Shown piece after piece: positions 3,065 through 58,934 of a stretch of 64,000 bases of DNA. Source of the DNA: Serripes groenlandicus (lineage: Eukaryota; Mollusca; Bivalvia; Cardiida; Cardiidae); NCBI GenBank assembly GCA_031761405.1, contig JASEVX010000003.1, positions 146,893,527-146,957,526 on the forward strand, given 5' to 3'. A program made the translations under genes and the position numbers. How positions within the stretch are numbered: the stretch's first letter is position 1; the number at the start of each line of letters is the position of its first letter. The notes under the pieces were generated by a model. It ran no database searches and had not been told where the DNA came from. It was given only the letters and a program-made list of their open reading frames with translations.

Positions 3065-6000
3065 TGTACGAAGGGCACGTAATCCATTACACGATGATCT
3101 TGAGTCCAAAATATTCCTTTGTGTATAAGATATTAACTTCGCTAGAGTCCCTTGTGGCAAGGCTACTAAGTCCATTACATTTTATTTGTGCCAATAATAT
3201 TTAGTGCATTACAGTTGATATTTAGTGCATTATAGTACATTGTGTCAAAGATATTTAGTGCATTACAGCCCATTGTGTCTATGATATTTAGTGCATTACA
3301 GTCCCTTGTGTCTAGGATATTAAATGCAATAAAGTCCCTTCTGTCAAGGATATTAAGTGCATTACAGTCTCTTGTATCAAGGATATTTAGTGCATTGCAA
3401 TCCTTTTTGTCAATGATATTAAGTGCATTACAGTCCATTGTGTCTATGATATTTAGTGCATTACAGTCCCTTATGTCTAGGCTATTTGGTGCAATACAGT
3501 CCCTTCTGTCAAGGATATTAAGTGCATTACAGTATCTTGTATCAAGGATATTTAGTGCATTACAGTCCCTTGTGTCTAGGATATTAAATGCAATACAGTC
3601 CCTTCTGTCAAGGATATTAAGTGCATTACAGTCTCTTGGATCAAGGATATTTAGTGCATTACAGTTCCTTGTGTCAAGGATATTTCGTGCATGAAAGTCC
3701 CGTGTGTCCATGATATTCAGTGCACTACAGTTCTTTGTGTCAGTGATATTTAGCGTATTACAGTCCCTTGTGTCTATGATATTTAGTGCATTACAGTCCC
3801 TTGTGTCTATGCTATTTAGTGCATTACAGTCCCTTGTGTCTAGGATATTAAATGCAATACAGTCCCTTCTGTCAAGGATAATAAGTGCATTACAGTCTCT
3901 TGTATCGATGATATTTAGTGCATTACAAATCCTTTTTGTCAATGATATTTGGTGCATTACAGTCCCTTGTTTCTATGATATTTAGTGCGTCCCTTCTGTC
4001 TATGATATTAAATGCAATACAGTCCCTTCTGTTAAGGATATTAAGTGCATTACAGTCCCTTGTGTCTAGGATATTAAATGCAATACAGTCCCTTCTGTCA
4101 AGGATATTAAGTGCATTACAGTATCTTGTAGCAAGGATATTTTGTGCATTACATTCCCTTGTGTCAAGGATATTTAGTGCATGACAGTCCCGTGTGTCCA
4201 TGATATTCAGTGCACTACAGTTCCTTGTGTCAGTGATATTAAGTGCATTACAGTCCCTTGTGTCTATGATATTTAGTAGATTACAGTCCCTTGTGTCTAG
4301 GATATTAAATGCAATACAGTCCCTTCTGTCAAGGATATTAAGTGCATTACAGTATCTTGTATCAAGGATATTTTGTGCATTACATTCCCTTGTGTCAAGG
4401 ATATTTAGTGCATGACAGTCCCGTGTGTCCATGATATTCAGTGCACTACAGTTCCTTGTGTCAGTGATATTTAGTGCAATTACAGTCCCTTGTGTCTATG
4501 ATATTTAGTAGATTACAGTCCCTTGTGTCTAGGATATTAAATGCAATACAGTCCCTTCTGTCAAGGATATTTCGTGCATTACATTCCCTTGTGTCAAGGC
4601 TATTAAGTGCATGACAGTCCCGTGTGTCTATGATATTTAGTGCACTACAGTTCCGTGTGTCAGTGATATTTAGTACATTACAGTCCCTTGTGTCTATGAT
4701 ATTTAGTGCATTACAGTCCCTTGTGTCTAGGATATCAAATGCAATACAGTTCCTTCTGTCAAGGATATTAAGTGCATTACAGTCTCTTGTATCAAGGCTA
4801 TTTAGTGCATTACAATCCTTTTTGTCAATGATATTTGGTGCATTACAGGCCATTTTGTCTATGATATTTAGTGCATTACAGTCCCTTGTGTCTAGGATAT
4901 TTGGTGCAATACAGTCCCTTTTGTCAAGGATATTAAGTGCATTACAGTATCTTGTATCAAGGATATTTAGTGCATTAAAGTCCCTTGTGTCAAGGACATT
5001 TAGTGCATGACAGTCCCGTGTGTCCATGATATTCAGTGCACTACAGTTCCGTGTGTCAGTGATATTTAGTACATTACAGTCTCTTGTGTCTATGATATTT
5101 AGTGCATTACAGTCCCTTGTGTCTAGGATATTAAATGCAATACAGTTCATTCTGTCAATGATATTAAGTGCATTACAGTCTCTTGTATCAAGGATATTTA
5201 GTGCATTAAAGTCCCTTGTGTCAAGGACATTTAGTGCATGACAGTCCCGTGTGTCCATGATATTCAGTGCACTACAGTTCCTTGTGTCAGTGATATTTAG
5301 TGCATTACAGTCCCTTGTGTTTATGATATTTAGTAGATTACAGTCCCTTGTGTCAAATATATTAAGTTTTACCTTATTTTTGTGTCAAGGGTTCTTAATT
5401 AAATATATTCCTTGTGCAGATGATACATTTTTCATTATTTACATTCCCATGTGTCAAGGGTATATAGTTTATTACATTCCATATTGCCAATGGTACTTAG
5501 TGTATTACATTCCTGTGTGGCAAGGGTATTGAGTACATTACAATTATTTGTGCCAGTGGTACTTAGTCCATTACACTTGTGTACTTAGTTATTACATTCC
5601 TTTATGTCAAGGGTACTTAGTGCATAATTTCCTTTGTAACAAGGGTACTTAGTTCACAACAGTCTTTTGTGTCAAGGGTATCACGTTCATGACATTCATT
5701 TGTGTCAAGGGTACTAAGTGTATAACATTCCTTTGTGTCAAGGGTATTTCATTATTTTCTATCCATAGTGCCAGTGGTACTTAGTTCTTTACATTCCTTT
5801 GTGTCCAGAGAACTTAGTTCATTACATTCATTTGAGTCAAAAGTTCTTAGTTCATTATTTACATTCCTTTGCGTCGAGAGTACTTTGGTCATTACATTCC
5901 TTTATGTCAATGGTACTTAATTCATTACATTCCTTTGTGTCAAGGGTACTTGGTTCATTACTTACATTCCTTTGTGTAAAGGGTACTTAGTTCATTACTT

Positions 6001-6140
6001 ACATTATTTTGTGTAAAGGGTACTTGGTTCATTACTTACATTCCTTTGTGTCAATGGTACTTAGGTCATTACATTACATCATGCCATGTGTACTTAGTTC
6101 AGTACATTCCTTTGTATCAAGTGTACTTGGTTACTTACCT
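3065..6140. repeat. 33-bp minisatellite array, ~90 copies, two subfamilies
   Basis: The array is built on a unit of 33 bp. From about 3170 to 5370 the unit contains ATATTTAGTGCATTACAGTC followed by CCTTGTGTCAAGG variants. From about 5380 to 6140 it changes to GGTACTTAGTTCATTACATT followed by CCTTTGTGTCAAG. Because 33 is a multiple of 3, reading frames stay open across many units on both strands and give false proteins with an 11-residue repeat (for example DTRDCNALNIL on the minus strand). Unit variants such as TTAAATGCAATAC recur every few units, which indicates a higher-order pattern. I do not call genes here. Confidence 0.95.
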
Positions 6141-6149
6141 ATCCGTTTG

Positions 6150-10790: not shown

Positions 10791-13479
10791 ACTGCGTCAA
10801 ATTCAAGAACGTAAAACCCGCTATCAAAATGCTGAGATTAGCGTCGTTTTTTTTATGCGCAGTTATTATCGGAGGATATTTCGGAAAGTGATGCATTAAC
10901 AGGGTATGGATTTTGTGAATTATTTGATTTCGTTTAAGATCTAGACCTATACATGCCTTTTACATTTACATTAAATGAATTCGTTAAAATAACACATAAA
11001 ATAACAGTGACATGTGTATATCCGCTTGTGCTTTTCTCACTGAAACGTTTCATTTCAGGCATGTTATAGGTTACTACGTCCGGACGAGGTACGCCATTAC
11101 TAGCTGCTGCCTTTTGTAAGTAACACACTGCATCTTATAAAGCTTACCTCTCTAATTATCTTAAAATTGCATTTCAACCTTATTGCCAGCACGTATTTAC
11201 TAGTGTACCACGGCTGCAGCATGAAGCGATATGGCATTTTTGTTTGACTTTCTTTTCGCTTCATTAAGAATATCAAGCAGTAATAAGACGGACCTGATTT
11301 ATATATTAGATATAAATATAATGGCTCTGAAGGTTCACCAACTGACGCACAAGATACGTCTGATTTTACAAACATTAAATAAAGCTTTTGCGCGTTGGTT
11401 GATGTATAGATATGTTCAGATTGTTATTTCTTTCATTTTTATTTCGATATTTTTATCTGATCTGAGCTAATGGTAGAAAAATAGTATGATGTAAACATGC
11501 TGATTTCACTACAGATAAAACGGACTTAAGTGTTAAGAACATTGTCAATGTCTCATCCCGTTTCAATACAGTTGCTTGTTTGCTGAATTTTCTACGCGTT
11601 TGTATGAACGTATTACACGTTTGTTTGAACAAACTTTTTGATCATTAAAATGCGGTCACTGTGCTTCATGTGTGATACTGTGATACCCAAAATAAGATAT
11701 CAATGTGTATCAATCTTAGAGTCACAGTTCCTCTTCGTGAAAAAACAAACAAAGAACAGAATAAAAATTACCTCTGAAAGATAAGAATCCTCAAATGGAA
11801 ATAATTGCAGTATTTAAATTAGTCTTTATGTTTCAAACTAAAGGATGTTAAAGATACAAGACCTTCAAGTTAGTAATGGTGACAGGTAAATGTAAGTTTC
11901 TTTAAAGAGATGAAATACGCTGCAATATTACATAAGAAAGATTATATTATATGGTTCCAATTCTGTTGTATATGGATGCTCTTTGGGGGTAATTTTCAAT
12001 ATTTCATAATGCATATCCATTTCTTTGAAAGAAATTCACAATGAGCTGCCGGTGTGAATCTTCTGGAATGACTAAAATTAGATAGTGATTTACAAGGTAT
12101 AGTGTACATACGCGGTAGAAAATATCAAACAAAAAGTGCCTTATTAATTCTAATCTAAAAAACACATGACTTTTATGTCGACGCGACATACATTGATTAT
12201 GGTTACTTGCTCCGCGAAAACCAATCGTAGGGTATTTGCAATCAGGCTAGATACAGCGAATGCTCAGGCTTACATTTCGTTTAGACTTGTTTGAGTCAAG
12301 AATTGTCTGACAAACATTATTGATTTAGATTAGACTTCATGGTTGCGCAAGCAAATCATTTTGTATATTTGTCAACCATAATATTGCCTTTGCTGAATCT
12401 TTGATCAGACAGTTTTTAAAAATGATAAACCATGCGAATGCAAGTGTTCTTAATATATTCTGTGTATTACACAAAACGACAAACTATCCTTTGAATGAAG
12501 ACAATTATATTATACCGTTCTTTTTATCGATACGCATGAGGCAACTCAAAATTAGACATGAAACAGTAATTTTGTAAAAAAATGTCGTACTTTGTATTAT
12601 TGATACACAGTGGATGGAGACATAGGCCTGACGTTGCGTACCGCTCATCTCTGAAACAGCTTTGCGACGCCGACTGGAAAGATGATGGCACTGGAAACTG
12701 TAGAATACGTAAGGGACATTTTTACCATGTACTATTATATTTGTCTCTCTATGAATTGCAATTTAACTCGTGTATAGTTGCAGAAGTGAATATAGAAATA
12801 TTTTTCCAAAAAGAAAAGATCCCCACCATAAAAAATCAAATTATTGTTGGTCTTGTGAAAATTAATATCATTCGGTCCACATAGTACTTTTTTAGTGATC
12901 ATATTACACAATAGCTCTATGGAGATCCCAGCAGGAACATTCATTACAGTAACAGTGTCTTCCTATTTATTGACTGTATTGAACTAACTGATGCATTCAG
13001 AGTATGCAATATATTAAAACAATATATTAATATTTACAATTATAACAGTAAACTTAGAAGTGTAATCTACCAAAACAGTTGTGTTTTTAATGATTTTCTG
13101 GTTATTCATCTCCAGTATTATACTTTACGTTTAGTGACTGTTAAACAAAATGGATTGCAAGCTTCTATTTTGACTGCAAATCTGTATATAAATGAACAGA
13201 TTTATATAAAAACGCCTAAACCAAAAACAATGTTATAATGTACAAAATAGTTTTGCATCTCCAAAACAGAGGGCAAGCGTGAACTATGTAGCATATGTGT
13301 AACCGCTTATATCGGAGATAATTTAATCAAAAGCATGACTGAAACTGCTAGGAGTTAACACTGTAAATGAAACTTATCAAGAAAGGACATTTGTTATGAT
13401 ATTAAATCTTTCAACAGTTTTTACGAGGACCAGCAAAGTAACATTCCCGTAAAGTTTGGTTGATATCAGTCCAAGGTTT

Positions 13480-14745
13480 AGGAGGAGATTTTGTTTTAAG
13501 CTAAAAGTTCATGTGACCCCTATTCGGATGCAGCATGGCAGATATTTTTTCAAACCAACCAATATGTCTTGAACAAATTAAGAAGATGGTCACTTAAGGA
13601 TGATATTCGCTAAGTTACAAATGTATCCTGAAATCAGACAAAAACTTGAATAGAAAAGGAATTATTAAGTTTTGTCATTTTGCCCTTTTTTCTGATGCCG
13701 TCTGGCTGCCATGTTTTACAACCAATCAATACGGCTTAGACAAATCTTGTAGAGGGTCACTCAAGGAACATTTGCACTAAATTATCTTGGAATCTGACGA
13801 AGAAGAATTTTACAGTTTAGGCATTTTACTCCCTTCCTCCTGCCGCAGCAACAAAAGTTGTGTTTAGAATTTATATCTTTGAACATATTTAAAAGAGGAC
13901 CACCAAAGAAACTTTGCTGTGAAGTTTTGTTGAAATTTGCCCAAATGATTAGGTTGAGTTGTTATTTGAAACTAAAAGTTCAATTTACCCCTTGTTTGAT
14001 GCCGCATTGTATCTATGTCTTTCAACCAATCAGTATGGCTTAAAGAATTATGAAGAGGGTCACTGAGGGAACGAAAAGTACAAGCACTTTCATAAGAATC
14101 GAGTTTTAAAATGTTGTGATTTTGCACTTTTCTGATGCCGCCTCGCGGTTCTTTTAACCAATTAATATGACTTAGGGACATTTCTACTGAATAACATCGG
14201 AATCGGACATGCGGATTTACAGGAGAAGATTGTTACATATTGGGCATTTTAATCCCTTTCTCATATACCGCACAAACAAGAGTTCAACATATATCTGTGA
14301 ACATAATTAAGAAAAGGACCGCCGAAAGAACACTCCTTGTTGTTTTCTCCAGTGGACTAGTATGAGATGTCATTTGAAGCTTAACGTTCAATTCCCCCCC
14401 CCCCCCCCCCCCCCCCCTTTCAGATTCCACCTGGTTTCTACGACTTTCATCCAAACAATAACACTTAAAACATGTAGAGGGTTATTGAATGAACAGCTCT
14501 GCTAAATTTTCTTGAAATGAGACAAGCACTTTCATAATAATGTATTTTTAAAGTTTTGTCATTTTTGCCCCTTTTCTTATGCCGCCTGATTGCCGTGTTT
14601 AATAGTCAAATCAATATGATTGTATTTGTAGAGAGTTATCCAATGATAACATTATATTGGTATCAGATAATCTAATTCAGAGGAAAGTATTCTTAAAAAT
14701 TAGGCAAATTTCAGCCTTTCTGATGCCGCACCAAATTCTCCGTAG
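13480..14745 (+). repeat. Degenerate ~170-210 bp tandem repeat, copy A intron 3
   Basis: Each unit carries TTCTGATGCCGCCTGG, then TTTCAACCAATCAATATGGC, then AGAGGGTCACTCAAGGAACA, then AAATCAGACAAGC. At least five decayed units lie in the intron before exon 4. The units are the same family, in opposite orientation, as the core of the 50112-50886 element and as blocks near 25.5, 31.9, 37.4, 45.8 and 54.2 kb. Confidence 0.8.
14394..14417. repeat. Poly-C run, 24 C
   Basis: The paralogous site in copy B (about 55115-55137) is an interrupted C-rich stretch, CCTCCGACCCCACCCCTCCCCC. The pure run therefore arose, or was restored, in copy A after duplication. Confidence 0.85.
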
Positions 14746-14754
14746 AAAATAGAT

Positions 14755-14972
14755 CTACCAAGCAATTTCTTCTTTTGCCATTATATTTCCAAAAGTTGTC
14801 TGCTGCAGGGGCGTCAAAAAGGGTCTCTGTGTGGTTAAGGGTTGATATCTCAGGTTTATTATTCTGAATATTTCAGAATAGCATGGAAAATATTGTTGCG
14901 ACATGAGATATTGCTCTGTCTCCTTTTGCCACAATGTTTTCAAAAGGTGTCTGCTGCAAATGCATCTGCAAG
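14755..14972. mobile_element. Foldback element copy (A)
   Basis: Shares CTTTTGCCATTATATTTCC and GTTGTCTGCTGCAGG with its partner at 55465-55700 in copy B. It predates the segmental duplication. It ends with TTTTGCCACAATGTTTTC and GTGTCTGCTGCAAATGCATC. Confidence 0.75.
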
Positions 14973-15122
14973 TGTTAAAAACTGCTATTAAAATATCATA
15001 AACAAATGTACTTTGTAAGAAGAAATATATGTTGCTCAAATATTTCTGTTACAAGATGGAAAACAGGGTTACAATTTACAAGGGGTAATTTGATCAGGCA
15101 GTCGTACACTCTTGAGTATTTG

Positions 15123-15127
<5 letters not shown>

Positions 15128-15175
<48 letters not shown>
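15128..15175. repeat. Poly-G run, 48 G
   Basis: Copy B has GAAGGGGAGGGGTACATAG at the same site, so the run replaced an interrupted 9-bp purine stretch. It sits about 300 bp upstream of exon 4. Confidence 0.9.
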
Positions 15176-15177
<2 letters not shown>

Positions 15178-15641
15178 TAGTGATATCCTTATCCTTTATT
15201 ACACTAAAATAGGAAATGTATATATTCAGAGACTTGTAGTTTTATTTTGTTACTTAGAAGAAGTATTTTTTTTACTTATTTGACTTTTGCTTATGTTTGC
15301 ATTCGTAATTCAGTCAAGATGCACTATTTTTCTGGCGCACTGAATTGATAGAAATGGTGTTCTCTGTTATTTAAATCACGTGGCTTCAAAAGTTCAACTG
15401 CCACTATGGTAGCCTTGCTATCGAAATTCTACCAATCAAAATGATGAAAACCAATATACCTTGTTTTACAGCCGTGTGCATAACCCCTTGTTATAATGGT
15501 GGAACTTGCGTGTCTCCGAACACTTGCAGCTGCCTAAGTGCATATAAAGGAAGCCACTGTGCATACCCGGTGTTAAAGGAAAAATAACAAAACCAATCAA
15601 TGATACTAGATTTTGGATTTTCTTTTGTAATGACTGAAAAC

Positions 15642-15924: not shown

Positions 15925-15994
15925 TAGAGTTAGACATAACTGCCATTGTGAAAGTCTTTGAAAAGACCAGGGTTTTGATCCCGCGCACTCTCAC
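15925..15994 (+). mobile_element. tRNA-like SINE head fragment
   Basis: TAGAGTTAGACATAACTGCC resembles a degenerate box A, and CCAGGGTTTTGATCCCGCGC a box B, at about 45 bp spacing. It is absent from copy B, where the minisatellite begins directly after CAACAATTCGTAGACCC, so it is an insertion in A at the array edge. Confidence 0.4.
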
Positions 15995-16372
15995 ACCAGA
16001 GGTAGACCCATCCACCACTACACCACCGAGGTAGACCAATCTACCACTACATCACCGAGGTAGACCCATCCACCACTACACCACCGAGGTAGACCCATAC
16101 ACCACTACACCATCGAGGTAGACCCATCCACCACTACACCACCGAGGTAGACCAATCCACCACACTGGTAGACCCATCCACCACTACACCACCGGTGTAG
16201 ACCCATCCACCACTACACCACCGAGGTAGACCCATCCACCACTACACCACCGAGGTAGACCCATCCACCACTACACCACCGAGGTAGACCCATCCACCAC
16301 TACACCACCGAGGTAGACCCATCCACCACTACACCACCGAGGTAGACACATACACCACTACACCACCGAGGC
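15995..16372. repeat. 29-bp minisatellite, ~13 copies (copy A)
   Basis: Unit CACCGAGGTAGACCCATCC plus ACCACTACAC, exact period 29 bp. Located about 400 bp downstream of exon 4. The homologous array in copy B has about 46 units. Confidence 0.95.
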
Positions 16373-16517
16373 AGTAGTTTTTGTATAAGTTAGCAACGGG
16401 CAATATTTAAAACTTAAACTTAAGTATTGCATAAAAGGTGTGCGCTTTGTTTGTGAGCCATGCACAAAAGTAAATAATATCATTTAAGGTTCACGAACTG
16501 TGTATTTAGTATTCTAA

Positions 16518-18352: not shown

Positions 18353-18491
18353 CCAAGACTTTAGTGGCGTACAGACAGAAATTGATAAAATTGGCGGATT
18401 CTTCGGAATTAGGATGGCGGGTGGTAACTGAGTATGAGGCCAACCCTCTTGCCAGTGACTCCGATGATGAGAAACGCATGTACAAGGCAAA
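18353..18491 (+). pseudogene. Gag segment disrupted by a 101-bp tandem duplication
   Basis: Bases from TTGGCGGATTCTTCGG (18391) to GTACAAGGC (18488) are repeated from 18492 with an offset of 101 bp. As 101 is not a multiple of 3, the frame entering from the upstream exon is shifted at the junction and stops within about seven codons. The second copy carries the correct frame into the RT. The repeated part encodes LADSSELGWR, EYEANPLASDSDDEKRM, a conserved piece seen in related DIRS-order Gag proteins. Confidence 0.85.
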
Positions 18492-21056
18492 TTGGCGGAT
18501 TCTTCGGAATTAGGATGGCGGGTGGTAACTGAGTATGAGGCCAACCCTCTTGCCAGTGACTCCGATGATGAGAAACGCATGTACAAGGCTGAGGCTAGAG
18601 CTTCCAAAAAGATAAAAGCTGAAAAGACGAAGAAAGGCCGGACATCACATGCTTGGCCATATCGGAAAGGGGCTAACAATGCATCAACGACGTCGACGCC
18701 GTCTCCTGCACAATCTACCGGCAGACCGGGGCTTTGTTTTGATTGTGGTAAACCAGGCCATTGGAGGGGCTCGCCTGATTGTCAGGCGAATGCATCGAAA
18801 AATAAGATAAGTATAAATACGTCGGCAATTATTCAGAATAATGTAGGACGGTCTTTAGCAAGTGTTGTACATTGTGTGGAAAAGACGGAAAATGGTGAAT
18901 TAAAAGTAATAACACCAGTTGGCAGGCTAAAGGCTAAATTAGAAAAGTGGAAAGAAGCCACTGATAGTGTATTTATACATGATACTGTTGAAAACGGTTA
19001 CAAGTTACCTTTAAAAATGGTACCAGAAAGAGTAATTTTAAAGAATAATAAATCTGCTAGAGAAAATATGAGTTTCGTTCATGACGAAATAAGTAATTTG
19101 TTAAAAACGAGTGTAGTTACAGAGGTGATAACTCCTCCTCATGTTGTAAACCCTTTGACCGTGGCATATAATAAAAAGGGTAAACCTAGACTGGTTCTTG
19201 ATTGCAGACACATAAATGAGTATCTCCATCTTTTCAAAGTCAAATTTGAAGATATTAAAGTCGCGGAATGCATGTTTGATAATAGATCATTTTTGTATAC
19301 TTTCGATTTGAAAGGAGCGTATCATCATATTGATATATACCAGGCGCATAGAACTTTTCTTGGCTTTAGTTGTAAATACAACGATAAAACGAGGTATTTC
19401 ATTTTCAATTCTCTTCCGTTCGGTATAAAAACGGCAGGTCATATATTTACAAAAGTTATGAGGGTTGTGGTGAAGTTCTTAATGAGCAAAGGTCATAAAG
19501 TCATTATGTTTTTAGATGACGGAATAGGCGGAGATGCTAGCTATGAAAAAGCTATTTGGTCCAGTGAGTTTACAAAGCAAACGTTACTCGCATTTGGTTT
19601 TTTGTTGGCTCATGAGAAGTGTCATTGGATACCTATACTGAGGGTCACATGGTTAGGTCATGATTTAGACATGCACAATAATCGGCTATATATTGCCAAA
19701 GACAGGATAGAAAGGCTTCATGGCAAAGTAAAGATCCTTTTGAAGGAGATCAAGTTCAAAACTATGTTTCTCATTCATGTTAAATATCTGGCGAACTTAA
19801 TCGGTCAGATTGTATCTATGCAAAGTGTTTTTTGTGGAAAGACCAGATTGATGACTAGGTATATGTACAAATGTATTGATTCAAGAGCTAGCTGGAACGC
19901 CCCAGTAAGAATTACAACTGAAGTAATTACTGAGCTAACGTTCTGGAACACAAATTTGGTCAGTCTAAATGAGCGTGGAAAACCCATCAAAGATGGTCGG
20001 TTATGCAGTTATAGCCTATTTTCAGATGCCAGTGGGACAGGTTATGGTGGTTATGTAGAATATTTACCCACTGGGTGCATAAACCTCAAGGAAAATTTCC
20101 AATTACCATTTTTAAGTATAAATGAGTACGAGTCATCGAATGATGTGAGGCAAAGATCCCCGGAAGTGGATTGTGAGACAAATTGTCTGGTCCCGGAAGT
20201 GACCGAAACTCGTGATATCGAGTATGATTTAGGAATCCCGGATGTGGGTTCTTTGGAAGAAATGTTGTTCCCGGAAGCGGATTTGGAGTTCGACTCTGAA
20301 ATGGTCGGTTTATGGTCATTTTCTGAGCACGACGAAAGTTCGACTTGGAGAGAAGCGGAATCAATATACCGCATCGTTAGTTCGTATGCGAACGTTTTAC
20401 AGAATTCCTTAGTCAAGGTATATTGCGACAATAAAAATGTTATTTCAGTTCTGCTTAATGGCAGTCGTATTTCTGCAATTCAAAATATTGCTGTAAACTT
20501 GAATGTTGTATGTGATAAAGAAAACATTGTGCTTTTTCCTGAATGGATTCCAAGGCGCGAAAACGTCAAAGCCGATTACCTTAGTAGGTGTTATGATTGC
20601 GATGATTGGACAATCGCCGATACTGTTTATAACAGTTTAGATGGAAAATGGGGTTCCCATTCAATTGATAGATTTGCTTCCCATTGGAATACTAAATGTA
20701 TCAGGTTTAATTCAAGATGGTGGGTACCAGGAACAGAGGCTGTTGATTGTTTTCAGCAATCGTGGAGTAACGATAGAAATTGGCTGGTTCCTCCCCCAAG
20801 ATTAATTTCAAAATGTATTGGAAAGATTATCAGAGAAAGGGCTAACAGTACTTTGATAGTACCGAAATGGAAGAGTGCGCCATTTTGGCCACAACTAGTT
20901 AATGAGAACGGAGAATTCAAGCTATTGGTGAAAGATTTTGTAAATCTAGGTCGAAAAAACATCATATCTGCAGGTTTAGGAAATAACGGTTGTTTTGCTA
21001 AAACCCCATTGACATTTGATATGTTGGATTTGAATTTGGGGTTTGAAGATATTTAA
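18492..21056 (+). CDS. Gag zinc knuckle - reverse transcriptase - RNase H - methyltransferase-like polyprotein
   Basis: 854 codons, open throughout. Rough residue positions: conserved Gag tail 1-50; zinc knuckle C82-x2-C85-x4-H90-x6-C97; RT fingers and palm with KPRLVLDCRHINEYL (~235), FDLKGAYHHIDI (~275), SLPFGIKTAG (~310) and catalytic FLDDG with D342-D343; RNase H with SDASGTGYGG (~511), REAES (~620), YCDNKN (~643) and KADYLSR (~693); then IDRFAS, RFNSR, PGTEAVD, WLVPPP and SAPFWP (720-800). The last part resembles the Dam-type methyltransferase domain of DIRS/PAT elements, but the NPPY-type motif is VPPP, so activity is doubtful. The true start is in the upstream exon; 18492 is only where the frame opens. 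Confidence 0.85.
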   Translation: MADSSELGWRVVTEYEANPLASDSDDEKRMYKAEARASKKIKAEKTKKGRTSHAWPYRKGANNASTTSTPSPAQSTGRPGLCFDCGKPGHWRGSPDCQANASKNKISINTSAIIQNNVGRSLASVVHCVEKTENGELKVITPVGRLKAKLEKWKEATDSVFIHDTVENGYKLPLKMVPERVILKNNKSARENMSFVHDEISNLLKTSVVTEVITPPHVVNPLTVAYNKKGKPRLVLDCRHINEYLHLFKVKFEDIKVAECMFDNRSFLYTFDLKGAYHHIDIYQAHRTFLGFSCKYNDKTRYFIFNSLPFGIKTAGHIFTKVMRVVVKFLMSKGHKVIMFLDDGIGGDASYEKAIWSSEFTKQTLLAFGFLLAHEKCHWIPILRVTWLGHDLDMHNNRLYIAKDRIERLHGKVKILLKEIKFKTMFLIHVKYLANLIGQIVSMQSVFCGKTRLMTRYMYKCIDSRASWNAPVRITTEVITELTFWNTNLVSLNERGKPIKDGRLCSYSLFSDASGTGYGGYVEYLPTGCINLKENFQLPFLSINEYESSNDVRQRSPEVDCETNCLVPEVTETRDIEYDLGIPDVGSLEEMLFPEADLEFDSEMVGLWSFSEHDESSTWREAESIYRIVSSYANVLQNSLVKVYCDNKNVISVLLNGSRISAIQNIAVNLNVVCDKENIVLFPEWIPRRENVKADYLSRCYDCDDWTIADTVYNSLDGKWGSHSIDRFASHWNTKCIRFNSRWWVPGTEAVDCFQQSWSNDRNWLVPPPRLISKCIGKIIRERANSTLIVPKWKSAPFWPQLVNENGEFKLLVKDFVNLGRKNIISAGLGNNGCFAKTPLTFDMLDLNLGFEDI

Positions 21057-21089
21057 TTAGCCATTATTTATATTGTAACAGGTATTGGT

Positions 21090-22094
21090 TTGAAGCAAAC
21101 ACTAAAATGTAAATTAGATCGGGCAGGAGTGCAGATCGATACACAATCATCAGTTGCGGAAAGAATGGCGGGATATCTTCTTCAGTCAAGGGCGGACAAT
21201 ACGGTCAAAAAGTACAAGAGCTGTTTTGCTTTGTTTGAAAAATTCTGTTTTCAGCATATCTTAGTGTCAAAGCCCGCGCTGCCAATTAGTGTAGCCATGT
21301 ATTTCACGTCTCTTTTGGACGAGGGGAAATCAGTTAGTGTAATAACGTCCGCATATTACGGTATTAAGTGGGCACATACCATTAACGATCTTGTTGATCC
21401 GACTGAAAATAGCATTGTGAAACAATTATTAGAATGTGCCAAGCGTAATAATTCGAAACCAGTTCAAAAGAAAGACATTTTAACTTCTGATATGTTGAAG
21501 AATTTGTGTTTTATGTACACTGATTGCACTAACGTTTTAGACTTAAGAGATTTGTGTATGATCATGTTAGCATATACCGGTTTTCTTCGTATTAGCGAAG
21601 TAACAGAATTACGATGTAAAGATGTTCATTTCAACGACGATCACATAGTCATAAAGATCAGAAAAAGTAAAACAGACATTTACAGAGACGGATCGGAAGT
21701 TGTCATTTGCAAAGGTGTTTCAGAAGCTTGTCCTTTATCATTGTTATATAGATATATGAATGCAGCTGGTATCTCTTCATCATCGGATGATTATTTATTT
21801 AAGCCGGGGTTCTGTTCAAAAAATAGAGTATCTCTTATTAAGAAAAAAAAGCAATTAAGCTATACCAGAGCTAGAGAAACTATAGTTAAGAAACTTAAAC
21901 TGGTTGCACCGGATTTGAAACTGGGTACCCATTCCCTGAGAGCAAGCGGGGTTACATCTGCAGCAAATAGTTCAGTTATATCTGAAATGTGTTTGAAAAG
22001 GCATGGTCGGTGGAAAACCGACATAGCTAAGGATGGTTATATAAAGGATTGCATTGAGAACAGATTGTCGGTGACTAAGGTTTTGAACCTTTAG
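21090..22094 (+). CDS. Tyrosine recombinase of the retrotransposon
   Basis: About 334 codons, open. N-terminal SAM-like core-binding part (SRADNTVKKYKSCFALFEKF, 33-52). The catalytic part has R in GFLRISEV (~167), K in RKSKTD, HSLRASG giving H-x-x-R (~284-287), a W in RHGRWKTD (~308) and the nucleophile Y in KDGYIKD (~316), so the R-K-H-R-W-Y set is complete. It integrates circular cDNA in this order of elements. The first ATG in frame is 25 codons in (21165). An acceptor-like TATTTATATTGTAACAG just upstream suggests production from a spliced RNA. It starts 33 bp after the RT stop. Confidence 0.9.
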   Translation: MKQTLKCKLDRAGVQIDTQSSVAERMAGYLLQSRADNTVKKYKSCFALFEKFCFQHILVSKPALPISVAMYFTSLLDEGKSVSVITSAYYGIKWAHTINDLVDPTENSIVKQLLECAKRNNSKPVQKKDILTSDMLKNLCFMYTDCTNVLDLRDLCMIMLAYTGFLRISEVTELRCKDVHFNDDHIVIKIRKSKTDIYRDGSEVVICKGVSEACPLSLLYRYMNAAGISSSSDDYLFKPGFCSKNRVSLIKKKKQLSYTRARETIVKKLKLVAPDLKLGTHSLRASGVTSAANSSVISEMCLKRHGRWKTDIAKDGYIKDCIENRLSVTKVLNL

Positions 22095-51630: not shown

Positions 51631-54600
51631 ATGCTGAGATTAGCGTTGTTAGTTATATGCGCAGTTATTATCGGAGGATATTTCGTCTCGGAAAGTGATG
51701 CATTAACAGGGTATGTATTTGGTGAATTATTTGATTTCGTTTAAGATCTAGACCTATACATACCTTTTACATTTACATTAAATGAATATATTAAAATAAC
51801 ACATAAAATGACAGTAACATGTATATATCAGCTTGTACTTTTCTCACTCAAACGTTTCATTTCAGGCATGTTGTGGATTACTACGTCCGGACGAGATACA
51901 TCAGACATACTAGCTGCTGCTTTTTGTAAGTAACAAACTGCATTGTATAAAAGCTTACCTCTCTGATTATCTTAAAATACAGTTGCTTGTTTACTGAATT
52001 TTCTATGCGTTTCCAGTTGTATGAACGTATTACACGTTTTTTTTAACAAACTTGTTGATACTTTTGTAACGAAAACGTTCGGTATACGTTGCATTTGATA
52101 TGAAAATTTACATCACCGTTTCGAATTGATGGAGTTTAGGATTTGATATATAAGACAAGTGGACCCCTTCAGGGTTGAGTATACTTTTCGCTGAAGGGAT
52201 TTTCTGCGTCTTTAGCCCGGCACGTTACATTGGTGGCAGCGGTGGGGTGAAGACAACTGCCATACCGGAGTTGCCTTACCCATGGGTTTCCCAGGCCAAG
52301 ACTCGGGACGAGTCTTCCCGGAGTGGAAAGTAGTGTAACGAAAACGTTCGGTATACGTTGCATTTGATATGAATATTTACATCACCGTTTCGAAGTGATG
52401 GAGTTTAGTATTACATATATAAGACAAGTGGACCCCTTCAGGGTTGAGTATACTTTTCGCTGAAGGGATCTTCTGCATCTTTAGCCCGGCAAGTTACACT
52501 TTAAATGGGGTCACTGTGCTTTATGTGTAATACTGTGATACCCAAAATAAGATATCAATGTACATCAATTTTAGTGTCACAGTTCCTTTTCGTGAAAAAA
52601 CAAACAAAGAACAGAATAAAAATGACCTCTTAAAAGATAAGAATCCTCTCATGGAAAGAATTGCAGTATTTAAATTATTATTTATGTTAAACATACCAGA
52701 CCTTCAAGTTAGTAATGGTGACAGGTAAATTTAAGTTTCTTTAAAAAGATCAAATACGCTGCAAGACTACATAAGAAGAGTTACATTATATGGTTCCAAT
52801 TCTGTTGTATCCGGATGCTTTTTTGGTGTAATTTTCATTTCTTTGAAAGAAATTCACAATGAGCTGCCGGTGTGAATCTTCTGGAATGACTAGAATTAGA
52901 TAGTGATTTACAATGTATAGTGTACATTCTATATTGGTAATACGCGGTAGAAAATATCAAACAAAAAGTGCCATATTAAGTCTAATATCTTAGCAAAAAA
53001 ACCATGACTTTTATGTCGAGGAGACATTCATTTATTATTTTTACTTGCTCCGCGAAAATCAATCGTAGGAAATTTGCAATCAGTCTAGATCCAACGGATG
53101 CGCAAGCTTATATTTCTTTTAGAACTGTTTGAGTCAAGAATTCTCTGACAAACAATATTGATTGAGATCAGACTTCATGGTTGCGCAAGCAAATCATTTT
53201 CTTTATTTGTCAAACATAATATTGTGCCTTTGCTGGATCTTTGATCAGACAGTTTTTGAAAATGATAAACCATGTGAATGCAAGCGTTCTTAATATGTTC
53301 TGTGTATTACACAAAACGACAAACTATCTTTTGAATGAAGACAATTATATTGTACCGTTCTTTTTATCGATACGCATGAGGCAACTCAAAATTAGACATG
53401 AGACAGTAATTTTGTAAAAAATGTCGTACTTTGTATTATTGAAACACAGTGGATGGGGACGAAGGACTGTCGTTGCGTACCGCTCATCTCTGAGACAGCG
53501 ATGCCAAGACTACTGGAGAGATGATGGCACTGGAAACTGTAGAATACGTAAGAGAATTTTTTACCATGTAATAGTTTATTTGTCGCTCTATAAATTGCAA
53601 TTCAACTCATTTATAGTTGCAGAAGTGAATATAGAAATATTTTTCCAAAAAGAAAAGATCCCCACCATGACAAAAATAAACTATTGTTGGACTTGTGAAA
53701 GTTAATATCATTCGATCCACAGAGTACTTTTATAACGATTATATTACACAATAGCTCTATGGAGATCCCAGCAGGAACACATTCATTACTGTATTAGTGT
53801 CTTCCTATTTATTGACAGTACTGAACCAACGGATGCATTCAGAGTATGCAATATATCAATACAATCTAGTAATATTTACAATTGTAACAGTAAACTTAGA
53901 AATGTAATCTACCAAAACAGTTGTGTTTTGAATGATTTTCTGGTTATTCATCTCCAGTATTATACTTTACTTTTAGTGACTGTTAAACAAAATTGATTGC
54001 AAGCTTCTATTTTAACTGCAAGTTTCTATATAAATGTACAGATTAATATAAAAAGGCCTATAACCAAAACCAATGTTATAATGTACAAAATAGTTTTGCA
54101 TCTCCAAAACAGAGGGCAAGTGTGGACTATGTAGCATATGTATAACCGCTAATATCGGAGATAATTTAATCAAAAGCATGAATGAAACTGCTAGGAGTTG
54201 AAACTGATTTTTTTTTTTTAAACCCTAAAGTTCACTTTACCCCTATTTTGATGCAGCATGGCAGCTATCTCTTCAAACCAATCAATATGGCTTGAACAAA
54301 TTAAGAAGAGGGTCACTAAAGGAAAATTTCCGCTAAGTTACAAATGTATCCTGAAATCAGACACAAACTTGAATAGAAAAGGAATTATTAAGTTTTGTAA
54401 TTTTGCCCCCATTTCTTTTGCGGTCTAGCTGCCATATTTTTCAACCAATCCATACGGCTTAAGCAAATATTGTAGAGGGTCACCCAAGGAACATTTGTAC
54501 CAAATTATCTTTTAATCTTACAAGCTGATTCAGAGAAGAAGAATTGTACAGTTTAGGCATTTTCCTCCCTTCCTTCTGCCACAGCAACAAAAATTGTGTT

Positions 54601-57026
54601 TAGAATTTATATCTTTGAACACCACCATAGAAACATTCCTGTGAAGTTATGTTAAAATTTGCCCAATGGATTAGGTTTAGTTATTATTTGAAACTAAACG
54701 TTAAATTTACCCCTTTTCTGATGCCGCCTGGTATCTATGTCTTTCAACCAATCAGTATGGCTTAAAGCATTATTAAGAGGGTCACATAAGAAAAGAGTTT
54801 TAAAATGTTGTGATTTTGCACTTTTATGATGCCGCCTCGCGTCTCTTTTGTTAACCAATTAATATGACTTAAACAAATTTCGTAGGAACATTTCTACTAA
54901 ATAACCTTGGAATCGGACAAGCGCATTTACAGGAGAAGATTGTTAGATATTGGTCATTTTAATCCCTTTCTCATATACCGCACAAACAAGAGTTCAACAT
55001 ATATCTTTGAACATAATTAAGACAAGGAACACCAAAAGAAAAAAACACTTCTTGTTGTTTTGTCCAGTGGATTAGGATGAGATGTCATTTGAAGCTAAGC
55101 TAAAAGCTTTCAATCCTCCGACCCCACCCCTCCCCCTATCAGATGCCACCTGGTTTCTACTACTTTCATCCGATTAATAAGACTTAAAACATGTTGAGGG
55201 TTATTGAATAAACAGCTCTGCTAAATCTTCCTGAAATCAGATAAGCACTTTCATAAGAATGTGGTTTTAAAGTTTTGTCATTTTGCCCTTTTCTTATGCC
55301 GCCTGAATGGCGTGTTAAACAATCAATCAATATAAGTGTATGTGTAGAGAGTTATCCGATGATAACATTATGTTGGTATCAGATAATCTAATTCAGAGGA
55401 GAGTATTTTTAAAAAATAGGCAAATTTCACCCTTTCTGATGCCGCAGCAAATTCTCCGTAGAAAGTAGATCTACTGAGCAATTTCTTCTTTTGCCATTAT
55501 ATTTCCAAAAGTTGTCTGCTGCATGGGCGTCAAAAAGGGTCTCTGTGTGGTTAAGGGTTGATATCTCAGGTTTATTATTCTGAATATTTCAGAATAGCAT
55601 GGAAAACATTGTTGCAAAATGAGATATTGCTCTTTATGAGCAATGTCTCCTTTTGCCAGAATGTTTTCAAAATGTGTCTGCTGCAAATGCATCTGCAAGT
55701 GTAAAAAATGCTATTTAAGGTAGTAGGAGCCTAATGGGCAACAATTCAAATTATGATCAGCTTGATAATTTCTTAATGTGTATCATTTCCTGGATTCAAA
55801 AACAAAATTTAAAAGAAATTTAACCTCAAATAACAATTTTATTTTAATTTGAATTTCCCTACCCCCTTTTTAGAATTTTCGATAAAAACGACATCACCCG
55901 TGAGACAAGAAAAATCCTTTATTTCATTTTCAACATTTTGGTAATACTTTGATATCAAAGTAAAAAGAAATATATTTGCTTTCAGAAATAAAAAATTATT
56001 GATCACATCACCAACAAATATAATCAAACTGTACTGGAATAGTCATATGGTATTACGATTTTAACATACTATTTTGACCGCGTAAAATTGGAACATGATA
56101 ATTAACTTTAACCTTTTGGGAACATTATGCTAAAATATCAAAATGTTTTTTACCGTCTCATTTAAATAAAATAGAGTTTCAAATTCCCAACCACCTATTT
56201 CAGCCGTGACTGCAAGTAATAAAATCTTCAAAGAAGCTAATATTTATGTATAGAAATATATTTAATTACTTTTTAATTCAAAGTACAATATAAACTTCTG
56301 TAAAAAGTGTTAGCTAATGAAAACAAAGAAGAAAAAAAGAAAAACCACTACCTTGAAACCCTCAAAAGATTTGTAGTCCTGCGCTTAATTAACAACATAG
56401 GCTGAAGCATTAAACATTGAAAAGTTTTAAGTGGAGATTTTCATAACGCTTCTACTACCTTAAATATCACAAACAAATCTACTTGGTAAGAAGAAATATA
56501 TGTTGCTCAAATATTTCTGTTACTAGAGGGAACACAGGGTTACAATTTACAAAGGGTAATTTGATCAGGCAGTCGTACAATCTTGAGTATTTGAAGGGGA
56601 GGGGTACATAGTGATATTCGTATCCTTTATTACACTTAGATATGATATTTACACATTCAGAGACTTGTAATTTTATTGTGTTACCTAAAATAAGTATGTA
56701 TTTTTTTACTTATTTGACTTTTGCTTATGTTTGCATTCGTAATTCAGTCAATAATTGTTTGCACTATTTATCTGGCATACTGAACTGATATAAATTGTGT
56801 TCTCTGTCATTTACATCACCTGACTTCAAAAGTTCACCTGAAACTATGGTAGCCGTGCTATCGCAATTCTACCAATAAAAATGATGAATACCAATATACC
56901 TTTTTTACAGCTGTGTGCACAACCCCGTGTTATAATGGTGGAACTTGCGTATCACCGAACACTTGCAGCTGCCTAAGTGCATATAAAGGAAGCAACTGTG
57001 CAGATCCGGTGTTAAAGGAAAAATAA
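51631..57026 (+). CDS. Small secreted EGF-like domain protein, four exons (copy B)
   Basis: Exons 51631-51710, 51866-51925, 53450-53547 and 56911-57026 have GT/AG borders and phases 2, 2 and 1, and join into 354 bases: 117 residues and TAA. Residues 1-24 are a signal peptide ([20 protein letters not shown], cut near SDA|LTG). Residues 28-79 form a linker with CC, QRC and GNC cysteines. Residues 80-113 are an EGF-like domain, C-x3-C-x5-C-x5-C-x-C-x8-C, with [12 protein letters not shown] and YKGSNC. The C-terminus is DPVLKEK. The CC..GW..R.. then EGF order is reminiscent of the end of EMI plus EGF proteins, but the EMI part is too short to be certain. It is presumably secreted; its role is unknown. 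I chose ATG 51631 because an in-frame upstream ATG (51553) precedes the TATA box. Confidence 0.85.
52065..52498 (+). mobile_element. LTR miniature element (TRIM) in intron 2
   Basis: Two 165-bp direct repeats, 52065-52229 and 52334-52498, each starting TGTAACG and ending GTTACA, enclose 104 bp. One base after the left repeat is TGGTGGCAGCGGTGGGG (52231), complementary to the 3' end of tRNA-Leu. Before the right repeat is a purine-rich tract, GGAGTGGAAAG. CTTT flanks both sides (52061-52064 and 52499-52502). There is no coding capacity. The LTRs differ at about 8 of 165 bases. Each LTR has a TATATAA motif and a stem CCCTTCAG..CTGAAGGG. Copy A shows the empty site. Confidence 0.9.
52231..52247 (+). 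promoter_or_regulatory. Primer-binding site (tRNA-Leu type)
   Basis: TGGTGGCAGCGGTGGG matches the complement of the CCCACCGCTGCCA-CCA end found in several animal tRNA-Leu species. The first 16 bases fit and the following GT does not. Confidence 0.75.
54200..55455 (+). repeat. ~170-bp family repeat, copy B intron 3
   Basis: Counterpart of 13480-14745 in copy A, same unit order. It predates the duplication. Confidence 0.8.
55465..55700. mobile_element. Foldback element copy (B)
   Basis: Partner of 14755-14972. It retains a better centre (ATTGCTCTTTATGAGCAATGTC) than copy A, which has a deletion there. Confidence 0.8.
55715..56463. mobile_element. 741-bp TTAA-flanked element in intron 3 of copy B
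   Basis: TTAA lies at 55715-55718 and 56460-56463. Ends are GGTAGTAGGAGC and GCTTCTACTACC, an inverted pair with one mismatch. There is no transposase frame. Copy A reads GCTATTAAAATATC at this site. The TTAA target fits piggyBac or Kolobok, and the GGTAG start fits neither consensus I know precisely, so the superfamily is left open. Confidence 0.85.
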
Positions 57027-57250: not shown

Positions 57251-58579
57251 GTAGACCCATTCACCACTACACCACCGAGGTAGACCCATCCACCACTCCA
57301 CCACCGAGGTAGACCAATCCACCACCACACCACCGAGGTAGACCCATCCACCACCACACCACCGAGGTAGACCCATCCACCACTACACCACCGAGGTAGA
57401 CCCATCCACCACCACACCACCGAGGTAGACCCATACACCACTACACCACCGAGGTAGACCCACTACACCACCGAGGTAGACCAATCCACCACTACACCAC
57501 CGAGGTAGACCAATGCACCACCACACCACCGAGGTAGACCCATCCACCACCACACCACCGAGGTAGACCCATCCACCACTACACCACCGAGGTAGACCCA
57601 TCCACCACTACACCACCGAGGTATACCCATACACCACTACACCACCGAGGTAGACCCATCCACCATTACATCACCGAGGTAGACCCATCCACCAATACAC
57701 CACCGAGGTAGACCCATCCACCACTACACCACCGAGGTAGACCAATCCACCACTACACCACCGAGGTAGACCCATACACCAATACACCACCGAGGTAGAC
57801 CCATCCACCACTACACCACCGAGGTAGACCCATCCACCACTACATCACCGAGGTAGACCAATCCACCACTACACCACCGAGGTAGACCCATACACCACTA
57901 CACCACCGAGGTAGACCAATCCACCACTACACCACCGAGGTAGACCAATCCACCACTACACCACCGAGGTAGACCCATCCACCACTACACCACCGAGGTA
58001 GACCCATCCACCACTACATCACCGAGGTAGACAAATCCACCACTACACCACCGAGGTAGACCAATCCACCACTACACCACCGAGGTAGACCAATCCACCA
58101 CTACACCACCGAGGTAGACCAATCCACCACCACACCACCGAGGTATACCAATCCACCACCACACCACCGAGGTAGACCCATCTACCACCACACCACCGAG
58201 GTAGACCCATCCACCACTACACCACCGAGGTAGACCCATCCACCACTACACCACCGAGGTAGACCCATCCACCACTACACCACCGAGGTAGACCAATCCA
58301 CCACTACACCACCGAGGTAGACCCATACACCAATACACCACCGAGGTAGACCCATCCACCACTACACCACCGAGGTAGACCCATCCACCACTACATCACC
58401 GAAGTAGACCAATTCACCACTACACCACCGAGGTAGACCCATACACCACTACACCACCGAGGTAGACCAATCCACCACTACACCACCGAGGTAGACCAAT
58501 CCACCACTACACCACCGAGGTAGACCCATACACCACTACACCATCGAGGTAGACCCATACACCACTACACCACCGAGGC
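57251..58579. repeat. 29-bp minisatellite, ~46 copies (copy B)
   Basis: Same unit and period as at 15995-16372. Unit variants (CCAATCC, CCATACACC, CACCACCACACC) recur in blocks: the stretch from about 57700 to 58020 is largely repeated from about 58250 to 58520. Block duplication therefore drove the growth. Confidence 0.95.
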
Positions 58580-58934
58580 AGTAAATTTTGTATAAGTTAG
58601 CAACGGGCAATATTTAAAACTTAAACTTAAGTATTGCATAAAAGGTGTGCGCTTTGTTTTGTGAGCCATTCACAAAAGTAAATAATATCATTTAAGTTTC
58701 ACGAGCTGTGTATTTAGTAGTAGATACCGACCGCTATGATGGACATATCTTCTGGTATAGATGTATCAAAACAGGGACTTTTGACTTCTTGTGGGAACAA
58801 TACTGCGAAAGTAAAAAAACATTACATTTATTCAAAGATATTGTGGACATTTCTGGTTAATATATGCTATTTCATAACACTGAAAGCAATCAAACGAACT
58901 GCACAAGGAAATGAAGGTGCATAATTAAATATAT

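What the first reader, a model, noticed from the sequence alone, without database searches (positions are those of the whole stretch)
53450..53547. Exon 3 of the two paralogues differs only by amino-acid-changing codons
Seen: between 12611-12708 and 53450-53547 there are 13 base differences in 10 codons, and all 10 change the residue (R/G, H/R, P/T, D/V, K/R, L/R, D/Q, A/D, D/Y, K/R); no codon is changed silently. Cysteines and the GTGNC end are unchanged. In exon 4 (EGF) about half of the changes are silent. Inference: diversifying selection on the linker, towards a more basic surface in copy B.
Basis: seen in the sequence. Interest (0 to 1): 0.75.

Follow-up and report, generated by a model that had tools for sequence, protein, structure and literature searches.

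The report
Two gene copies, weak selection signal
Two neighbouring copies of a small secreted animal gene differ in one exon only by amino-acid-changing codons, but with just two copies, one of them broken at its start, this is close to what drift alone gives and does not show that evolution favoured the changes.

Summary
Exon 3 of copies A (12611-12708) and B (53450-53547) differs at 13 bases in 10 codons; all 10 differ in residue. It says less than it seems. By path counting the 13 differences are 11.5 replacement and 1.5 silent steps, because CAT/CGA and CTT/CGA hide silent third-base changes. Given 10 changed codons, no silent codon is expected by chance in 7-11% of neutral simulations. 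Exon 3 alone does not reject dN/dS = 1 (omega 3.65, p = 0.16). Clocked by introns omega is about 2.1 (p = 0.03, uncorrected), but p ranges from 0.007 to 0.94 with the flank used as clock. Copy A lacks 5 bp in its signal-peptide exon: that frame stops after 20 codons and no in-frame ATG remains. What stands out is the contrast with exon 4, the EGF-like exon, which shows constraint (omega 0.19, p = 0.022). Most likely: a duplicated small secreted EGF-like protein with a constrained EGF end and a weakly constrained cysteine-linked spacer, one copy now probably a pseudogene. Diversifying selection is possible, not shown; no outgroup could be reached.

The parts
51631..51710 (+). Copy B exon 1: likely signal peptide ([27 protein letters not shown]), GT donor
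   Evidence: signal-peptide reading is by eye, no predictor was run
51866..51925 (+). Copy B exon 2: start of mature part, ends in CC motif
52065..52498 (+). Short LTR-flanked insertion in intron 2 of copy B (a terminal-repeat retrotransposon in miniature by its look): arms 52065-52229 and 52334-52498, 8 differences in 165, TG...CA ends, CTTT on both sides; absent from copy A
   Evidence: flanking CTTT read; absence from A from the alignment and the blastn within the window
53450..53547 (+). Copy B exon 3 (the finding): spacer between the CC motif and the EGF-like unit, 2 Cys
56911..57026 (+). Copy B exon 4: EGF-like unit and stop codon
10829..10903 (+). Copy A exon 1, 5 bp shorter than in B; frame from the ATG stops after 20 codons
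11059..11115 (+). Copy A exon 2, 3 bp (one codon) shorter than in B, frame open
12611..12708 (+). Copy A exon 3, frame open, 13 differences to B
15472..15587 (+). Copy A exon 4, EGF-like unit, frame open, 8 differences to B
12709..12774 (+). Start of intron 3 in copy A: 11 differences to B in 66 aligned bases without a gap, as dense as exon 3 (end point chosen after seeing the data)

Best explanation
The two loci are a dispersed duplicate pair of a four-exon gene for a small secreted cysteine-rich protein: signal peptide, short N-terminal part with a CC motif, a spacer with two cysteines (exon 3), and a C-terminal EGF-like unit (exon 4). Shown: exon structure, open frame in B, broken start in A, constraint in exon 4. 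Inferred: the EGF unit does the conserved work (a protein-binding contact), while the spacer needs little more than its cysteines, the aromatic residues and the GTGNC end, so most base changes there are tolerated. At about 8-9% neutral divergence, and probably with a run of unconstrained change in copy A after it lost its start, such an exon collects mostly replacement differences by drift, in a stretch where the following intron is also unusually diverged.
For: Whole-gene omega is 1.04, not different from 1 (p = 0.93). Exon 3 alone: omega = 1 not rejected (p = 0.16). 0 of 10 silent codons has neutral probability 0.07-0.11. Noncoding divergence is 346 of 4165 bases and overdispersed (variance 13.1 against mean 8.3 over 41 bins of 100 columns); exon 3 against all noncoding gives one-sided p = 0.066. 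Intron 3 is 11% diverged over its first 100 bases. Exon 4 rejects omega = 1 downward (0.19, p = 0.022). Copy A start frame broken.
Against: The joint outcome, many replacements and no silent codon, is uncommon under neutrality (0.0045-0.011). Noncoding-clock omega in exon 3 is 2.1 (p = 0.028), 2.38 (p = 0.012) with both 300-bp flanks and 2.55 (p = 0.007) with both 100-bp flanks; exon 3 against the 300-bp flanks gives one-sided p = 0.049. Intron 2 just upstream is only 3 of 99 diverged. Exon 4 constraint suggests that both copies were functional for much of their history, so pseudogene drift in A cannot explain everything. Both exon-3 cysteines are kept, whereas 45-48% of neutral runs with at least 8 replacements keep them.
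Confidence: 0.6

Rival explanations
1. Diversifying (positive) selection on the spacer after duplication: the two proteins were driven to different surfaces, as in arms-race or recognition proteins.
For: Exon-3 omega 2.1-2.55 with clocks from all noncoding sequence or from both flanks; heterogeneity against exon 4 p = 0.0054; 10 of 10 changed codons replaced while the two cysteines stay.
Against: Tests lose significance when silent sites of the exon itself or the downstream intron are the clock (p = 0.16; p = 0.096 for 300 bp and 0.17 for 100 bp); only 32 codons and two sequences; one copy broken; exon and test chosen after seeing the pattern; charge shift within chance.
Confidence: 0.22
2. 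A local divergence block: exon 3 and the start of intron 3 in one copy came by gene conversion from a third paralogue, or alone escaped conversion between A and B.
For: High divergence runs from exon 3 into intron 3 (11 of the next 66 bases, no gaps), while the last 100 bases of intron 2 are 3% diverged and 14761-14910 is 2.7%; with the first 66 bases of intron 3 as clock exon-3 omega is 0.98.
Against: The 66-base boundary was picked post hoc; no third copy is in the window and none could be sought in the genome (genome search not answered); the last 29 bases of exon 3 are identical inside the supposed block.
Confidence: 0.13
3. Assembly or allelic artefact: the broken start of copy A is an error or a segregating allele, and both copies are functional genes. 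(This concerns copy A only and can hold together with any of the others.)
For: Rests on one assembled sequence; exons 2-4 of A are open and its splice sites are kept.
Against: The gap is 5 bp and not a homopolymer length change; no read data were available to test it.
Confidence: 0.1

Closest known systems
WIF-1 type EGF repeats (PDB 2ygq)
   Same: EGF-like unit of the C..PC.NGG.C...N.C.C...Y.G..C type; best PDB sequence match, E = 2e-11
   Different: The WIF-1 chain matches with five EGF stretches in a row and also has a WIF domain (recalled); here one EGF unit in a 117-aa protein, and the best match covers residues 76-114 only
Fibrillin-1 N-terminal fragment (PDB 2m74) and SCARF1 N-terminal fragment (PDB 8hn0)
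   Same: A cysteine/Trp-rich segment leading into an EGF unit; whole-chain E = 1e-6 and 0.0086 (the domain names are recalled)
   Different: The fibrillin stretch that reaches into exon 3 scores only i-E 3.7; the CC-to-EGF-start piece searched alone finds neither, only 4 chance-level matches (E 0.74-1.6)
Accelerated exons in primate segmental duplications (PMC3906575, passages read)
   Same: Exon divergence above that of adjacent introns in duplicated genes, tested by exon against nearby intron
   Different: That study examined 178,295 exons with q-values and shows CD58 exon 4 at 0.20 against 0.04; here 0.133 against 0.083, one exon, borderline (one-sided p 0.049 against the 300-bp flanks, 0.066 against all noncoding, uncorrected)
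Myticin-C (PMC3164099) and CRP-I (PMC10138031) of Mytilus (abstracts read)
   Same: Small cysteine-rich mussel peptides from duplicated genes: myticin-C with two genes in tandem and replacement-rich parts, CRP-I with about 50 genes and pseudogenes
   Different: No sequence relation was tested or is claimed; [quoted passage not shown]
Lysin and sp18 of abalone (PMC9022041, abstract read)
   Same: Tandem duplicates of a secreted mollusc protein family with positively selected sites
   Different: The abstract reports repeated positive selection across a four-member family; here there is one pair and no outgroup

Membership tests
EGF-like domain proteins | Six cysteines in EGF spacing | tested here: met
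   Exon 4 of both copies carries six cysteines in [29 protein letters not shown] and its copy A counterpart; the spacing is judged by eye and by the PDB alignments
EGF-like domain proteins | Pfam EGF model above its curated cut-off | tested here: not met
   Copy B: EGF_PEAR1L 20.7 (cut-off 37.5), EGF_2 17.7 (22.1), hEGF 16.4 (29.3), EGF 9.3 (21.5); copy A exons 2-4: best EGF_2 21.2 (22.1). PDB EGF matches are significant, so called EGF-like, not placed in a Pfam family
EMI domain / MEGF-SCARF family | EMI domain match | tested here: not met
   No EMI family among Pfam matches up to E = 10 (HMMER's filters drop most weak matches); SCARF1 match E = 0.0086 over residues 50-111
Macin or defensin-type antimicrobial peptides | Pfam or PDB sequence match to such a family | tested here: not met
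   None in Pfam up to E = 10, none among 55 PDB matches up to E = 1 or 4 up to E = 10
Positively selected duplicate exon | dN/dS significantly above 1 in the exon | tested here: inconclusive
   p = 0.16 on its own; p from 0.007 to 0.94 with different intron clocks
Positively selected duplicate exon | Replacements on branches of intact copies (needs outgroup) | not testable with these tools
   No relative of exon 3 found; the genome search not answered
Pseudogene (copy A) | Disrupted reading frame | tested here: met
   5-bp gap in exon 1, stop after 20 codons, no ATG in the mature-part frame back to the upstream stop; an unseen upstream exon is not excluded
Pseudogene (copy A) | No transcript or protein | not tested
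   No expression data available

The most novel reading that the evidence does not exclude
The spacer between the CC motif and the EGF unit is the recognition surface of a small secreted effector family in this animal; after duplication selection drove copy B to a more basic surface while the EGF anchor and disulfides stayed fixed, and copy A was later discarded.
Probability: 0.15. Interest if true: 0.5.

Novelty: new member of a known kind. Interest (0 to 1): 0.2.

Why it matters
If selection were confirmed, it would name a small secreted EGF-like family with a fast-changing surface exon, a candidate for recognition or defence. As it stands, it mainly shows how easily a two-sequence, one-exon comparison suggests selection: ten of ten replacement codons is about a one-in-ten event under drift, and codon-level counting hides silent steps.

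Tried and rejected
Looking for more copies or an outgroup: protein search with copy B, 3 hits among 9 candidates, each covering 26-29% of the query; their sequences share only the EGF-type stretch. Region search on residues 22-81: 1 candidate, none at E <= 10. Search with the A+B alignment: 7 of 151 candidates at E <= 1, covering 25-31% of the query; the four new ones were not read. Genome contigs and viral contigs: 14 and 4 pattern matches, none a relative by tblastn. tblastn of copy B against the window: no third copy.

Rejected: 'no silent change at all' (S = 1.5 by path counting); 'the density of changes is exceptional' (scan P = 0.57); 'the basic shift is directional' (18-19% by chance). 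The EMI-domain idea came from memory of the CC.GW motif and was not supported by Pfam. NCBIfam: 0 families. A bacterial promoter scan upstream of copy B found nothing and is not informative for an animal gene. Paper searches: searches list no paper recognisable as being about this gene, but only part of the matches was listed in three of them (15 of 290, 12 of 37, 10 of 150). Seen: passages of PMC3906575, abstracts of PMC9022041, PMC3164099 and PMC10138031, all others as search listings.

Full report
WHAT IS THERE. The window holds two copies of a four-exon gene on the + strand, about 40 kb apart: copy A (10829-15587) and copy B (51631-57026), within a homologous tract broken by insertions. 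The three donors and three acceptors of each copy are GT and AG. Copy B encodes 117 residues: a likely signal peptide (by eye), a short part ending in a CC motif, exon 3 (a spacer with two cysteines and GTGNC), and an EGF-like unit in exon 4. The EGF unit matches WIF-1 EGF repeats (E = 2e-11) and fibrillin-1 (E = 1e-6) in the PDB but falls below the cut-offs of the Pfam EGF models. The piece from the end of exon 2 to the start of the EGF unit has only 4 chance-level PDB matches (E 0.74-1.6).

COPY A IS BROKEN AT ITS START. Relative to B, exon 1 of A lacks 5 bp; the frame from the ATG ends after 20 codons, and the frame that continues into exons 2-4 has no ATG back to the preceding stop. Exons 2-4 of A are open. 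An upstream exon or an assembly error is not excluded.

THE OBSERVATION. Exon 3: 13 differences, 10 changed codons, 10 replaced. Three codons have two differences each. For CAT/CGA one of two shortest paths, and for CTT/CGA both, include a silent step, so Nei-Gojobori counts are N = 11.5 on 74.5 sites and S = 1.5 on 21.5 sites (dN 0.173, dS 0.073). Exon 1: 4 of 4 changed codons replaced; exon 2: 4 of 5; exon 4: 3 of 7. Codons touching a gap were dropped: 113 codons were compared in the pooled counts.

IS IT MORE THAN CHANCE? (a) Noncoding divergence is 346 of 4165 aligned bases, leaving out A 11168-11660, where the alignment is poor. (b) Simulations with the noncoding substitution matrix (15,000 runs per direction, runs with a stop codon discarded): P(N >= 11.5) = 0.040 / 0.023; P(0 silent given 10 changed codons) = 0.113 / 0.074 (821 and 620 runs); many replacements and no silent codon together 0.011 / 0.0045. 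(c) 8138 overlapping intron windows on both strands read as pseudo-exons (about 43 non-overlapping per strand): N >= 11.5 in 4.3%; with no silent codon 1.1%; no silent codon given 9-11 changed, 11%. (d) A random single change in exon 3 is silent with probability 0.22-0.23, so 0 of 10 is about 0.07-0.09. So the headline is roughly a one-in-ten event; with the raised number of changes, one in a hundred to two hundred, before correction for four exons and for choosing the pattern after seeing it.

CODON MODELS (own GY94-type code, two sequences). Exon 3 free: omega 3.65, LRT 1.96, p = 0.16. Time fixed to the noncoding clock: omega 2.12, p = 0.028. Exon 4: omega 0.19, p = 0.022 (free); 0.41, p = 0.078 (clock). 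Exon 1 has no silent difference, so its free omega is unbounded (p = 0.115; with the clock 0.90, p = 0.82). Exon 2: 1.53, p = 0.69 (clock 1.76, p = 0.25). Exons 1, 2 and 4 pooled: 0.64, p = 0.39. All exons: 1.04, p = 0.93. Exon 3 against exon 4: p = 0.0054; all four exons: p = 0.032. Fisher on codons, exon 3 (10/0) against exon 4 (3/4): p = 0.015. The clock matters: intron 2 last 300 + intron 3 first 300, omega 2.38 (p = 0.012); both 100-bp flanks 2.55 (p = 0.007); intron 3 first 300, 1.74 (p = 0.096); first 100, 1.57 (p = 0.17); first 66, 0.98 (p = 0.94; this length was chosen after seeing the differences). These tests ignore the sampling error of the clock; direct Fisher comparisons give one-sided p = 0.066 against all noncoding and 0.049 against the 300-bp flanks, and two-sided 0.089 against the 100-bp flanks. 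Noncoding divergence is itself overdispersed, and 13 differences in 64 columns are reached by two intronic windows as well; one of these lies beside a 9-column gap and may be partly misaligned, the other is gap-free, as is the exon 3 / intron 3 stretch.

READING. The better-supported part is heterogeneity: the EGF exon is constrained, exon 3 is not. Even that comparison was chosen post hoc. Whether exon 3 goes beyond 'unconstrained' cannot be settled with two sequences. Because copy A is broken at its start, part of its change may be post-inactivation drift; because exon 4 is constrained, both copies were probably functional for a good part of their history. The net-charge shift (+1 to +4) is within neutral expectation. 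The elevated divergence continues into intron 3 but not back into intron 2, which is mixed evidence for a local effect.

AGE. A short LTR-flanked element sits in intron 2 of copy B (52065-52498), arms differing at 8 of 165 bases, absent from A. If arms and introns change at one rate, it was inserted after the duplication (4.8% against 8.3%).

COMPARISON. Exons outpacing introns in duplicated genes are a known phenomenon with a published test (PMC3906575, passages read); rapidly changing duplicated secreted proteins are known in molluscs (PMC9022041, PMC3164099, PMC10138031, abstracts read). Nothing here departs from those kinds. No outgroup could be obtained (genome search not answered).

Noticed in passing
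52065-52498: Miniature LTR-flanked insertion in intron 2 of copy B: 165-bp arms with 8 differences, 104-bp middle, CTTT on both sides; no other copy in the window.
   Followed up: partly
18471-22094: Two adjacent ORFs with reverse transcriptase (PF00078) and phage-integrase-type tyrosine recombinase (PF00589) matches, i.e. a DIRS/Ngaro-type retroelement by its look (name recalled), lying between the two gene copies.
   Followed up: partly
15992-16374 and 57251-58581: The same 29-bp minisatellite follows both gene copies, much longer after copy B (about 1330 bp against about 380 bp).
   Followed up: no
3094-6144: Long 33-bp tandem repeat array, with long open frames on both strands because the period is a multiple of three; probably not coding.
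   Followed up: no
14761-14910 vs 55477-55626: Intron 3 block only 2.7% diverged between the copies against about 8% over all noncoding sequence, possible conversion or constraint.
   Followed up: no
11168-11564: About 400 bp in intron 2 of copy A with no counterpart in copy B; insertion in A or deletion in B.
   Followed up: no
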